Shown here: positions 33,291 through 38,130 of the stretch, piece after piece | Position numbering within the stretch: the first letter of the stretch is position 1 | Layout: each line of letters begins with the position of its first letter | Source of the DNA: Notolepis coatsorum | Taxonomy: Eukaryota; Chordata; Actinopteri; Aulopiformes; Paralepididae | DNA length: 64,000 nucleotides | Assembly (NCBI GenBank): GCA_963971535.1 | Contig: CAXASK010000014.1 | Coordinates: 1,533,002-1,597,001, forward strand | Reading direction: 5' to 3' | The notes under the pieces: model-generated | What the model was told of the DNA's origin: nothing | Databases searched by the model: none | Seen by the model: the letters and a program-made list of their open reading frames with translations, nothing else | Translations under genes and position numbers: made by a program

Positions 33291-33697
33291 TTGTCCTAAT
33301 ATACTAACCTACACTGTAGCACTCAACACTTTGATGAACATTGTTACTCAGCTGATAGAGTTGTGCCCTTCCTGATGACTTGTCGTACAGACCTTGTAAG
33401 TCTAAAAGTGGATAAAAGCGTTCAGCTAAATGACTAAATGTAAATGGGAAATGGGGGACCCTGATGTAAACAAGACAAATCAAGTTTCAAGATTTTATTA
33501 TCATTTAAAATAACACAAGATTTATTCACATACACACCAGGGCATACAGTGAAATGCGGGTGGCCATGCCCACTTTGATTGTGCAGTAATACTAATAAAC
33601 TAATAAAATAGACATAATAAACAGGTAAAAAAATAGGCAGGATAAAATAGACATGCTAAAGTCAATGTTCAATGTTCTGATGGCCTCTCCAGAGTGA
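33291..33697. mobile_element. Retroposon 3' ends
   Basis: GGATAAAAGCG and GCTAAATGACTAAATGTAAA (33410-33448, plus) are a common fish SINE/LINE tail. It is followed by a fragment of the GGGGGACCCTGATGTAAAC 3'UTR (33452) and by the reverse tail CAAGATTTTATTATCATTT (33488, minus). Confidence 0.6.
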
Positions 33698-34148
33698 TCA
33701 CTGTGGTCTTTTTGAACCGCTGCTGGATACTTTGGCTGGTGCTGGGCATGTGATGTCTTGGGCTTTATCATCACAGAACTCTCTGATCTTGTGGAACAGA
33801 TAGTGTTGTCTTGCAGAGTCCAGTCCCAGTGGTGGCAGCACAGGAAGTCCATCTATAGGCGGCAGGACACGGACGTCACGGAGCAGCTGGAATCTGGTTT
33901 CAGCGCCATCAGTAGACATCTTTGCCACAACCACACCAGGTTCCTTGGAATCAAAGCTGCAATAATAAAGTGAAACGTTAGTACAGGGCACATAACAATA
34001 TCAATGCATTTGTATCATTTGCCAATGACATTCTTTGCACTAAAGTGTGAATAATTAATTACAGTAAATACACAACACACAGTGACCACACCCACCTAAA
34101 GTGCTGGTACTGCTTGATCTGTGGCAGTGGCTTGAAGTAAGGCCCCAG

Positions 34149-34814
34149 TGTCAGGATCCTAGGCCCGGTCCTGGCTGGACTGGGCAGGATGGTAACACTG
34201 GGCAGTACCCTCCACCTAACTTTGGGCAATGCCCTCTATCTGACATTGGCCCTCGGCCTGACATTGGCGCCCTACCACCCTCTAGTGGTGACAAACAATC
34301 GGTGCGCTCCAGTACACTGGACATCCTGACTACTGTGTTAACTATAATTAATAGTTTGATTAATGTGGTGTCATGGTGTGTACTGTCATTGTCTTTCCCT
34401 TCCCTGGTGTGATGTCATACACTGTTTTGGGTTGTTAGGAGTTGCTTTTGTGTTTAGTTGTGTTTAGTTGTGCTTTGCTTATTGTCTAGGTGTTGTTTGT
34501 GATTCTGTGTTGGCCAGGTGTTCTTAATTGCTAATTAGTCTGGGTATTTAGGTGTCTGTCTGTCTCCCCTTCGTTGTGGCGACATTCCTCCAGTTACCCC
34601 CTGTTCCTCCACGTCGTGTCACACCGTTCTCCCTCTAGTAAGTCTTAGTGTTTGTTGTTTTGTATTGTGAAGTTTGTTATTTAGTTTCTGTATTTTCCTT
34701 GTATTGCACTGGATTCTACAGTAAACTTCATTCTCCAAGCTTCACTCCTCGTCTCTGCCTCCTCCATTCCTTCCCTTTCTGTATTATTGCATTCTACCTA
34801 ACCCCATCGTGACA
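34149..34814 (+). repeat. 5' LTR
   Basis: 666 bp, TG...CA. A TATA-like GTATTTAGG at 34544-34552 lies ~30 bp before GTGGCGACATTC (34576), which would place the transcript start there. No canonical AATAAA was seen. Confidence 0.93.
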
Positions 34815-34826
34815 GAATGTCGCCAC
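34815..34826 (+). promoter_or_regulatory. Self-priming primer binding site
   Basis: GAATGTCGCCAC starts at the first base after the 5' LTR and is the exact reverse complement of 34576-34587. The start codon of the internal frame (34817) lies inside it. Confidence 0.8.
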
Positions 34827-36868
34827 CAACATTAACGAATGCAGCAGGAAAGGCAAGCGATACCATCACCGTTGTCCTGGCCCTGATGGCCGGTGACATG
34901 AAGAGTTACTCACTGGCCAAATGGGGGTTCCTACTCCGGAAGATCGACCAGGTCGCCACTGAGAACCCGACACTGCAGACGGCGATGTGGGAGATGGCTG
35001 AACATATTGCGGTCCTCATGGAGAAGCATAAGCCGAAGGCTAGTGTAGCTAGCCTGCCGACTGTTCTCAGGCTTACGGTCAGCCTAGATCCTCCCACAGC
35101 CGCTGAGGTTGCTCGGATGTCCATCGCCGGTCGGACGTCCACAGCTAACCTAGCTCCGCCGGTTAGCTTAGTGTCAAGAGCTAACCAGCCTCTCCCAGCT
35201 AACCTAGCTCCGCCCGTTAGCTTCATGCCAATAGCTAACCAGCCACTCTCAGCTAACCTAGCTCCGCCCGTTAGCTTCATGCCATTAGCTAACCAGCCAC
35301 TCCCAGCTAACCTAGCTCCGCCCGTTAGCTTCGTGCCAATTGCTGACCGGCTGTTCCCCGTTAGCACAGCTCCTCCTGTTAGCTCCGCCACTATAGATGG
35401 CCAGACGTCCCCAGTTGGTACAGCTCTACCCGTTAGCTCCGCTCATACAGCTAACCAGACGTCCACAGCTAACATAGCTCCGCCGGTTAGCTTAGTGTCA
35501 AGAGCTAACCAGCCACTCCCAGCTAACCTAGCTCCGCCCGTTAGCTCCGTTTCAATAGCTAACCGGCCGTTTCAAGCTAGCACAGTCTCCACTGCCAGAC
35601 TAGGCTCCAGGTTCAGGGTGAGCCTAGTATCTGAGACAGACCAGATGTCTCCAGCTAGCACAGTCTCCACTGCCAGACTAGGCTCCAGGTTCAGGGTGAG
35701 CCTAGTACCGGAGACGGACCAGATGTCCCAAGCTAGCCAGGCATCCCCAGCTAACATAGCTCCGCCCGTTAGCCCCGTCCCAATAGCTAACCGGCCGTCC
35801 CCAGTTAGCACAACCCCGCCTGTTAGCCCCGCTACAGTAGCTAACCAGACGCCCACTGCCAACCTAGGCTCCAAGTTCAGGGTGAGCCTGGTAGCGGAGA
35901 CAGACCAGATGTCTCCAGCTAGCACAGTCTCCACTGCCAGACTAGGCTCCAGGTTCAGGGTGAGCCTAGTACCTGAGACGGACCAGATGTCCCAAGCTAG
36001 CCAGGCATTTTCAGCTAGCACAGTTCCCACAGTGAGTCCAGGGCCCACAGTTAGCCTAGCCCCCGAGGCTAGTATGGCTAGTAAGGCCTCCACAGCTGGT
36101 CCAGCTTCCACGCCCAGTCCAGCCTCAGCTCTGGGTCCTGGCTCCTCATCCCCGGATCCTACACCACGCCTCGCCGCCGGGACCGATCCGGTCTCCACGC
36201 CCTGCCCGGCCTCTCCACCTGGTCCGGCTGCCGTGCCGGCTCCCGGCTCTTCGACGGATCCTGGCTCCCCGTCTGGTCCAGCTCTGCGCCGTGATCGGCG
36301 TCCTGGTCCTCGCCGTGGTCTCCGCCGGGGTCTTCGCCGTGGTCTTCGCCGGGGCCTGCGTGGGATCCTGCTCCGGGGGTCGTCGCCGCCGCACCTCCAT
36401 TCCGGCTCTCCTGAACCGGTCCCTAGTCCGGCGGCTGGAGGGCCTCTCGTCCGGGATCCGGCTCCAGGGTCCAGCTCCCCTTCCCGGGCTTCTACACCTG
36501 TACCCACCCCCCCTCGTCGGGCCTCGCTTCCCAGGTCCAGCCCTCCTCGTCGGGCCTCGGTTCTCAGGTTCTGCCCCCCTCCCCGGGTCTCGGTGCCCAT
36601 CCCCACCCCCCCTCGTCGGACCTCTGTTTCCAGGTCCAGTCCTCCTCCCCGGGCCTCTGTTCCCATCCCCACCCCCCCTCTCCGGGCATCTGCGCCCGTT
36701 TTCTACCCCCCTGGCTGCTATGCCCCTCCTGGGTTTTTTGTTCAGCCTCCTGGTCCCTCGTCTTCGGGTCCTCTCCCTGGGTCCTCTCCGGGGTTCCGGC
36801 TTCCTCCCTCACCTGCTTATGGACGTTGTTTTCGGGTGTCTGGAAGCCACCCGTTGAGGGGGGGGTAC
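34817..36868 (+). CDS. Pro/Ser/Ala-rich protein of the LTR element (gag position)
   Basis: The frame opens in the primer site with MSPPTLTNAAGKASDTITVV and stays open through the internal region, the purine tract and into the 3' LTR (stop at 37130-37132; 771 codons in all). The first ~100 residues look globular (SLAKWGFLLRKIDQVATENP). From about 105 to 400, units of ~27 residues repeat (ANLAPPVSFMPIANQP and STARLGSRFRVSLVPETDQM). The rest is Pro/Arg/Ser-rich. No CCHC zinc knuckle, protease or RT motif is visible, so a normal Gag is not shown; the position only suggests a Gag-like or accessory role. The minus strand is also open over 35572-36672, a by-product of base composition. Confidence 0.6.
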
Positions 36869-37534
36869 TGTCAGGATCCTAGGCCCGGTCCTGGCTGGAC
36901 TGGGCAGGATGGTAACACTGGGCAGTACCCTCCACCTAACTTTGGGCAATGCCCTCTATCTGACATTGGCCCTCGGCCTGACATTGGCGCCCTACCACCC
37001 TCTAGTGGTGACAAACAATCGGTGCGCTCCAGTACACTGGACATCCTGACTACTGTGTTAACTATAATTAATAGTTTGATTAATGTGGTGTCATGGTGTG
37101 TACTGTCATTGTCTTTCCCTTCCCTGGTGTGATGTCATACACTGTTTTGGGTTGTTAGGAGTTGCTTTTGTGTTTAGTTGTGTTTAGTTGTGCTTTGCTT
37201 ATTGTCTAGGTGTTGTTTGTGATTCTGTGTTGGCCAGGTGTTCTTAATTGCTAATTAGTCTGGGTATTTAGGTGTCTGTCTGTCTCCCCTTCGTTGTGGC
37301 GACATTCCTCCAGTTACCCCCTGTTCCTCCACGTCGTGTCACACCGTTCTCCCTCTAGTAAGTCTTAGTGTTTGTTGTTTTGTATTGTGAAGTTTGTTAT
37401 TTAGTTTCTGTATTTTCCTTGTATTGCACTGGATTCTACAGTAAACTTCATTCTCCAAGCTTCACTCCTCGTCTCTGCCTCCTCCATTCCTTCCCTTTCT
37501 GTATTATTGCATTCTACCTAACCCCATCGTGACA
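36869..37534 (+). repeat. 3' LTR
   Basis: Matches the 5' LTR over its full 666 bp by eye, indicating a recent insertion or gene conversion. Confidence 0.93.
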
Positions 37535-38030
37535 CCCCAGATGTTCCTGCCAGTTGTAGGACTGCACGATTACAGTGCCATCTTCCTTTCCTACTAGCTG
37601 TGGTATGTTGACTCCAGCCACTGAGCTGTCCCTTACGACTGCTGCAATCTCATCAAGAGTGTTCACTTATTGCAGGGTAGTGCACCTGCAATAAATGAAT
37701 AAGGATTTTAGAAAGAAAAAAAGGGAGCAATGCAGTAGTTATAACAATTATAACAGGATTGGGTTGTGAAAGAGGGCTTGGTATGTAGTCACCCTTTGAG
37801 CGTAGTCGAAACTGTAATGCATTGTCATGGGCTTACTTGCCGGTGGCACATGACCACCCAGAGAAAGACCATCACGGATCTCCTTGGCGGCTTTAAGCAT
37901 GGCGTTGTAGGCAGCCCTCTCGGAGGTTACATGCGTAAATGTTGCTCCTGCTGCTTCAGCTTCGCAGACTTCTCAGCCTCTGGCAGATTGGCACTTCTGT
38001 AAACCTGGGAGAGTTAAGTAAAGGATGATA

Positions 38031-38035
38031 TTAAT

Positions 38036-38130
<95 letters not shown>

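What the first reader, a model, noticed from the sequence alone, without database searches (positions are those of the whole stretch)
34149..37534. LTR element with the signature of self-primed reverse transcription
Seen: the 12 nt directly after the 5' LTR (34815-34826) are an exact reverse complement of 34576-34587 inside the LTR, and the latter lies ~30 bp downstream of a TATA-like motif, where transcription should begin. Known: Tf1/sushi-type Ty3/gypsy elements fold the mRNA 5' end onto the primer site and cut it to prime cDNA, using no tRNA. A chance 12-of-12 match at just these two positions is very unlikely. Here the element is non-autonomous and young.
Basis: partly seen in the sequence, partly recalled or inferred. 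Interest (0 to 1): 0.8.

Follow-up and report, generated by a model that had tools for sequence, protein, structure and literature searches.

The report
Self-primed jumping gene lacking polymerase
A young mobile element in a large, fish-like genome carries a short start-of-RNA sequence that pairs with the site where DNA copying begins, so it very probably primes its own copying as known sushi-type elements do, although it appears to encode no copying enzyme of its own.

Summary
Identical 666-bp LTRs flank a 2-kb interior without recognised pol; the target duplication is 6 bp. GTGGCGACATTC (34576-34587) is the exact reverse complement of the 12 nt after the 5' LTR and starts 31 nt after TATTTA. 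The genome has 356 places with this 12+12 arrangement (reversed control 0). A sister subfamily loses one pair, inside the 2-nt spacer, so the conserved duplex is 10 nt, starting 2 nt after the LTR. Three families bearing sushi-type (DUF4939) Gag in the same genome have other primer sites, each matching its own LTR sequence 30-31 nt after a TATA-like word: 39 of 40 pairs, 8 of 10 positions with both sides changed. The one mismatch predicted another letter in that family's site; 18 of 19 displayed copies have it. Two copies with a swapped U3 rejoin 2 nt before the inferred start. No TGG, needed by a tRNA 3' end, lies within 30 nt of the LTR. Self-priming is very likely but already known in vertebrate sushi elements. 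New here: an apparently pol-less family keeping it, and an orphan ORF whose AUG lies inside the primer site. Sushi membership and a helper element are unproven.

The parts
34143..34148 (+). target-site duplication, left copy (CCCCAG)
   Evidence: Same 6 bp at 37535-37540. The two other copies with both outer flanks in hand also have exact 6-bp duplications (GTTAAT, ACCACC).
34149..34814 (+). 5' LTR (TGTCA...TGACA), 666 bp
   Evidence: Identical to 36869-37534.
34545..34550 (+). TATA-like word TATTTA
   Evidence: 31 nt upstream of 34576. In one search a TATA-like word lies 30-31 nt upstream in 13 of 13 rows: TATTTA or TATA in 9, TATTTC in 1, TACTTC in 3.
34574..34576 (+). inferred U3/R border and transcription start
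   Evidence: TATA spacing; U3-swapped copies L010 and L034 rejoin the window LTR at LTR position 426 = window 34574 (BLAST border). Inferred, no RNA data.
34576..34585 (+). self-primer core, 10 nt (GTGGCGACAT)
   Evidence: Exact reverse complement of 34817-34826; present in 28 of 28 readable copies of the 30 fetched.
34586..34587 (+). two further primer bases (TC) that also pair here
   Evidence: Pair with 34815-34816; AC in 6 of 28 copies and in 99 genome places.
34720..34725 (+). possible polyadenylation signal AGTAAA
   Evidence: Sequence only; motif recalled, not tested.
34815..34816 (+). 2-nt spacer (GA) between LTR end and primer-site core
   Evidence: GA or GT in the four families compared.
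34817..34826 (+). primer-binding-site core, 10 nt (ATGTCGCCAC)
   Evidence: Complement of 34576-34585; its first three bases are the ORF's ATG.
34817..37132 (+). ORF of 771 aa starting inside the primer site (684 codons up to the 3' LTR)
   Evidence: no Pfam family at cut-off; open to the end of the fetched stretch in 25 of 30 copies.
35064..36056 (+). repeats in the ORF (54-nt units and longer blocks)
   Evidence: families D1, D2.
36856..36865 (+). polypurine tract (GAGGGGGGGG), 3 nt before the 3' LTR
   Evidence: Sequence; role by analogy.
36869..37534 (+). 3' LTR
37535..37540 (+). target-site duplication, right copy (CCCCAG)

Best explanation
This is a copy of a young LTR retrotransposon family that appears to lack pol. 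Its RNA starts at about 34576. The first 10 nt fold back and pair with the primer-binding site that begins 2 nt after the 5' LTR. A reverse transcriptase/RNase H supplied by another element (most likely an autonomous sushi-type element of the same genome) cuts the RNA after about nt 10-12, and the freed 5' piece primes minus-strand DNA. Shown by sequence: the complementarity, its place relative to TATA and LTR end, its upkeep and its co-change between families, and the absence of a tRNA 3'-end site. Inferred: the exact transcript start, the cut, the priming, and the helper.
For: Exact 12-nt pairing at the two expected positions. Core matched in 0 of 500 shuffles. 356 genome places with the exact 12+12 arrangement, 0 in the reversed control, plus 99 places with the AC form. 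28 of 28 readable copies (of 30 fetched, all from contig C1) keep the 10-nt primer core; they were chosen by the primer-site sequence, not by the primer. Ten of ten fetched stretches upstream of sushi-type Gag, falling into three families, match 9 or 10 of 10 at the corresponding place with other sequences; own primer/site pairing 10, 10, 10, 9 of 10 against 2-7 across families, 8 of 10 positions with two or more Watson-Crick pair types. Family C's single mismatch predicted ACACTGCGAC; 18 of 19 displayed copies have it (the primers of those copies were not seen). TATA-like word 30-31 nt before the primer in 13 of 13 rows. U3-swap junction at 34574 in L010 and L034. No TGG in the 30 nt after the window's LTR, whereas four other LTR families have TGG starting within 5 nt and only 6-7 of 10 LTR matches.
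Against: No transcript data. The window's LTR has no BLAST similarity at E up to 1 to any of the ten sushi-type loci, so kinship with them rests on design, not sequence. The two side duplexes of the Tf1 'pretzel' are not above shuffles here (as good in 103 and 204 of 300), and the possible U5-side partner GTGTCACA reads GTGTCGCA or GTGTTGCA in copies displayed. In the predicted fold the primer:site duplex is 1.4 kcal/mol above the minimum (mean pair probability 0.03), 9.1 above it in L010, so annealing may need a protein. The copies descend from few progenitors, so conservation inside the family is weak evidence by itself, and the R stretch just after the primer looks about as conserved.
Confidence: 0.87

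Rival explanations
1. A cellular tRNA primes, as in most Ty3/gypsy elements, and the complementarity is incidental.
For: Sites with TGG next to the LTR, as tRNA priming needs, exist in four other LTR families of this genome.
Against: No TGG in the 30 nt after the window's LTR, so no tRNA 3' CCA end can pair there; the co-change between families is unexplained. Priming by an internal tRNA fragment was not tested, because no tRNA set was read.
Confidence: 0.03
2. The inverted repeat is kept as an RNA hairpin or protein-binding site for translation, packaging or export rather than as a primer.
For: The site covers the ORF's AUG; the inferred leader has no ATG in the window and in 19 of 28 copies; in families A, B and C the likely Gag ATG also lies 14-17 nt behind the LTR (my reading).
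Against: The place next to the LTR end (2-nt spacer) in four families and the lack of a tRNA 3'-end site fit priming. The two roles are not exclusive.
Confidence: 0.07
3. Relic: the copies were made by self-priming of an autonomous ancestor, but this family now spreads otherwise or is dead.
For: No pol recognised in the element; the helper is not identified.
Against: Identical LTRs and an exact 6-bp duplication mean recent insertion after full reverse transcription; the 41 LTRs listed are 98-100% alike.
Confidence: 0.03

Closest known systems
Tf1/sushi group of Ty3/gypsy elements (sushi-ichi and other vertebrate members; Butler et al. 2001, not read, cited in PMC6317226 and PMC10085805)
   Same: Self-complementary primer site next to the 5' LTR, no tRNA 3'-end site, same design as DUF4939-Gag families of this genome.
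   Different: No Gag, protease, reverse transcriptase or integrase recognised here, so membership by phylogeny cannot be tested; LTR not alignable to the ten sushi-type loci read.
Tf1 of fission yeast (mechanism: Levin 1995, 1996, not read, cited in PMC10085805)
   Same: mRNA 5' end complementary to a site behind a 5' LTR that ends in CA.
   Different: Conserved core here is 10 nt after a 2-nt spacer (Tf1's 11 nt is recalled); side duplexes of the pretzel not supported here.
Small non-autonomous LTR elements (TRIMs, for example biv-TRIM, PMC6934838, passages read)
   Same: LTR element without recognised pol.
   Different: About 3.4 kb with a long ORF; TRIMs are under 1 kb. The bivalve paper names self-priming elements as a precedent for lacking a tRNA site and proposes no clear mechanism for its element.

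Membership tests
Self-primed LTR retrotransposon (mechanistic class) | site behind the 5' LTR complementary to the mRNA 5' end | tested here: met
   complementarity; the mRNA start itself is inferred from TATA spacing and U3-swap junction
Self-primed LTR retrotransposon (mechanistic class) | no tRNA 3'-end site | tested here: met
   no TGG in 30 nt; tRNA set not compared
Self-primed LTR retrotransposon (mechanistic class) | RNase H cut at primer 3' end and RNA-primed strong-stop DNA | not testable with these tools
   needs cDNA analysis
Tf1 'pretzel' RNA | two side duplexes flanking the primer:site duplex | tested here: inconclusive
   shuffles as good: window 103 and 204 of 300; L077 189 and 284; L079 254 and 160; L080 27 and 46; L082 292 and 255
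Tf1/sushi group | RT/integrase phylogeny with chromodomain | not testable with these tools
   element encodes no recognised pol
Tf1/sushi group | sushi-type Gag (DUF4939) | tested here: not met
   no Pfam family at cut-off in the ORF; DUF4939 is plentiful elsewhere in the genome (7,690 candidates, 150 scored)
LTR retrotransposon | TG..CA LTRs, polypurine tract, target duplication | tested here: met

The most novel reading that the evidence does not exclude
A pol-less family parasitises sushi-type enzymes by carrying its own cis-acting self-primer, and the primer doubles as a switch: when the RNA 5' end pairs with the primer site it buries the AUG of the element's long sense ORF (which lies inside the site), turning the RNA from messenger into template. 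The ORF would make an orphan, Gag-like RNA-binding protein (N-terminus predicted helical at low confidence, Ser/Pro repeats, Arg-rich tail) that helps the RNA into foreign particles.
Probability: 0.15. Interest if true: 0.7.

Novelty: new variant of a known kind. Interest (0 to 1): 0.45.

Why it matters
Self-priming was shown in fission yeast and is inferred for vertebrate sushi elements (passages of PMC4600332, PMC6317226, PMC10085805). Here one genome holds hundreds of places that keep the 12+12 arrangement of an apparently pol-less family, plus three families with unrelated primer sequences. That gives a natural compensatory-change test in a vertebrate-like host and separates the needed core (10 nt) from the spacer (2 nt). 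A small element with the signals but no recognised enzymes is a handy reporter for what RNA a self-priming reverse transcriptase accepts in trans, and the AUG inside the primer site poses a testable question about choosing between translation and reverse transcription.

Tried and rejected
Helper element: the search for the primer site not followed by the family's usual next base gave 6 places. Searching the ORF N-terminus gave six copies with open frames of 1,261-2,574 aa (150 of 1,372 candidates scored). I first took these for autonomous partners, but runs of N count as open frame (seen in L071), so this is no evidence. The best 150 of 11,444 candidates for the Tf2-type integrase SH3 domain include none in those six. 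RT_RNaseH_2 (150 of 23,011 scored): 29 of 30 fetched hits form one cluster and none matches the window's element. Of seven 10-kb loci around such hits, four gave an LTR pair and served as controls; three (L070, L071, L074) did not and were dropped. Controls have BLAST-set LTR borders, some cut by the locus end or N; L072 had two repeat pairs and the 172-bp one was used. A megablast of the element against phage records gave nothing.

ORF function: no Pfam family at cut-off (DUF5632 at E 0.0052 is below it), no homologue in two protein searches, no PDB sequence; a single-sequence fold of mean pLDDT 63.5 had no match with E below 0.001. dN/dS of the N-terminus (ten pairs; L014 and L025 dropped for stops): 0.46-0.71 in six pairs between subfamilies, 0.66, 0.73 and 0.98 in three closer pairs, undefined for L018/L028 (no synonymous change, 6 others). 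Purifying selection is not shown. N-terminal indels that mark a subfamily are 3 and 6 nt, while two single copies have 1 and 13 nt (the script stopped by error at L036, so 27 of 30 copies). Repeat-region indels are not interpretable.

The pretzel side duplexes were tested and are not supported for this family. Within-family compensatory changes were not counted.

Full report
Observation. The window lies in a 3.42-Gb genome; fish-like is my inference. The element spans 34149-37534: two identical LTRs of 666 bp, ends TGTCA/TGACA, a GAGGGGGGGG tract 3 nt before the 3' LTR, and a 6-bp duplication CCCCAG on both sides. The two further copies with both outer flanks in hand also have exact 6-bp duplications (GTTAAT, ACCACC). 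With the flanks joined, a minus-strand frame is open across the site, so the insertion seems to have hit an exon-like stretch. The 12 nt after the 5' LTR are the perfect reverse complement of 34576-34587.

Is it chance? A 10/10 match to the core was found in 0 of 500 dinucleotide shuffles of the LTR. Genome-wide, GTGGCGACATTC followed after 215-244 nt by GAATGTCGCCAC occurs at 356 places (the pattern is its own reverse complement, so the 356 on each strand are the same places), against 0 for the reversed control. I take these to be copies of one family, so the number shows upkeep and abundance, not independent events. One search lists 41 LTRs at 98-100% identity (2,303 candidates, 40 scored); 13 neighbouring pairs in that list lie 2,666-3,126 bases apart start to start, so these copies have interiors of about 2.0-2.5 kb.

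Within the family. A pattern search for the LTR end plus site gave 30 fetched copies, all on contig C1. In 28 the primer region could be read (L009 is N there; L032 is unrelated sequence there). 22 of 28 have the full 12-nt primer, 6 of 28 (L015, L017, L035-L038) have GTGGCGACATAC, and 28 of 28 keep the 10-nt core. The AC form occurs at 99 places (47 + 52); its LTR is about 81-82% identical to the window's where measured (L036-L038). Its mismatch faces the 2-nt spacer. The conserved duplex is therefore primer nt 1-10 with site nt 3-12.

Between families. DUF4939, the Gag domain that I recall as sushi/PEG10-type, is plentiful in this genome (7,690 candidates, 150 scored). Ten 1-kb stretches upstream of such domains were fetched and all ten entered the test, with the window and two of the 30 family copies (L010, L035). 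Whether these ten elements are complete was not checked. Three families appear. A (seven loci): site core ATACCACGAC with LTR GTCGTGGTAT. B (two): ATGAAAAAGC with GCTTTTTCAT. C (one): ACACTGCAAC with GTCGCAGTGT. In all 13 rows the best LTR match to the site core starts 30-31 nt after a TATA-like word; the word is TATTTA or TATA in 9 rows, TATTTC in one and TACTTC in three, the last two forms having been added after looking at the sequences, so this count is generous. Matches are 10/10 in 8 rows and 9/10 in 5 (L076, L078, L082, L083, L085). Shuffles reaching the observed value, out of 500: 0, 1, 0 (window, L010, L035); 0, 0, 0, 0, 0, 1, 1 (A: L077, L079, L081, L084, L076, L083, L085); 2 and 45 (B: L080, L078); 13 (C). 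For some loci the LTR start was not known and all upstream sequence was used. Four other LTR families gave 6-7 of 10, reached by 135-500 of 500 shuffles, and have TGG starting within 5 nt of the LTR. A primer-by-site table gives 10, 10, 10, 9 on the diagonal and 2-7 off it; 8 of 10 positions carry at least two Watson-Crick pair types. Families A and C are recognisably kin, so the four are not fully independent; the window's LTR has no BLAST hit at E up to 1 in any of the ten loci.

Prediction test. The mismatch in family C's one locus predicted that intact copies read ACACTGCGAC. A genome search allowing A or G at that place found 124 copies (49 + 75); of the 19 whose letters were displayed, 18 have the predicted G and 1 the A. 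The primers of those copies were not seen.

Where does the RNA start? Besides the TATA spacing, two copies (L010, L034) carry an unrelated U3 centre (LTR positions 154-425 replaced) and rejoin the window LTR at position 426, that is window 34574, by BLAST borders. A junction at the U3/R border is what strand transfer between two different RNAs would leave; the kept first 153 nt need a second exchange or a shared start. L010's U3 has its own TATTTA at -30. PMC10085805 (passages read) reports a U3 difference whose border lies 9 bp from the U3-R junction in Tosmo2.

tRNA. No TGG lies in the first 30 nt after the LTR, so no tRNA 3' end can pair there. Internal tRNA pieces were not tested; ARAGORN found no tRNA gene in the window.

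RNA structure. The 12-bp duplex alone is worth -20.4 kcal/mol, the 10-bp core -16.6. In the folded leader, forcing it costs 1.4 kcal/mol in the window (mean pair probability 0.03), 9.1 in L010 and 1.0 in L079; it is part of the minimum-energy fold in L077 and L080. The extra duplexes of the Tf1 pretzel are not better than shuffles in the window's leader.

The ORF. It begins at the ATG inside the site (34817), runs 684 codons to the 3' LTR and 771 aa in all, has 54-nt repeats and an Arg/Pro-rich tail. The inferred leader has no ATG in the window and in 19 of 28 copies; 3 have one and 6 (the AC subfamily) two. 25 of 30 copies are open to the end of the fetched 1.5 kb, but a 366-aa antisense frame exists too, so openness is weak evidence. 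No relative outside the genome was found. It holds no recognised Gag, protease, polymerase or integrase domain.

Mechanism. Best reading: RNA starting at about 34576 pairs its first 10 nt with 34817-34826; a sushi-type reverse transcriptase/RNase H acting in trans cuts behind the primer and extends it into the LTR. The 2-nt spacer would be copied and later trimmed by integrase (inference). A helper of family C's kind is possible: the last 18 nt of the LTR plus spacer agree at 16 of 20 positions with family C, against 10 and 11 for A and B. This is suggestive only. A helper sharing this exact LTR and site was not found and not excluded.

Literature. Passages of PMC6317226, PMC10085805, PMC4600332, PMC3601003 and PMC6934838 were read. 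They say that self-priming is a common feature of Tf1/sushi elements, implicated from fungi to vertebrates, citing Butler et al. 2001 among others, which I did not read. Six paper searches were answered. Those that asked for non-autonomous elements listed: one pepper-genome paper without the word self-priming; eight papers, titles and abstracts only, none on a self-primed element by title; only the bivalve TRIM paper. The library lacks most subscription papers, so a prior report is possible.

Verdict. Observation confirmed, interpretation supported with two corrections. The mechanism is known; the apparently pol-less family, the 10+2 anatomy and the AUG inside the primer site are the new points as far as these searches show.

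Noticed in passing
33690-34148 and 37535-37680: The element interrupts a minus-strand frame that is open across the joined flanks. The two flank peptides tried have no Pfam family at cut-off.
   Followed up: partly
38025-38100 and beyond: A long microsatellite of TAA-type units just right of the element.
   Followed up: no
L010, L034: A subfamily whose U3 centre is replaced by unrelated sequence with its own TATTTA, the rest of the LTR kept.
   Followed up: yes
L077, L079, L081, L084 (family A) and L082 (family C): Family A's primer runs into a small inverted repeat (GTGGTATTAATTACCAC), and family C's into GCAGTGTTAAACTGC; the window's primer shows no such repeat by eye.
   Followed up: no
34635-34644: CTAGTAAGTC in the inferred leader resembles a splice donor (motif recalled); splicing was not tested.
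   Followed up: no
L071:6509-10000: Runs of N are counted as open frame by the genome search, which makes very long open frames in its tables unreliable.
   Followed up: yes
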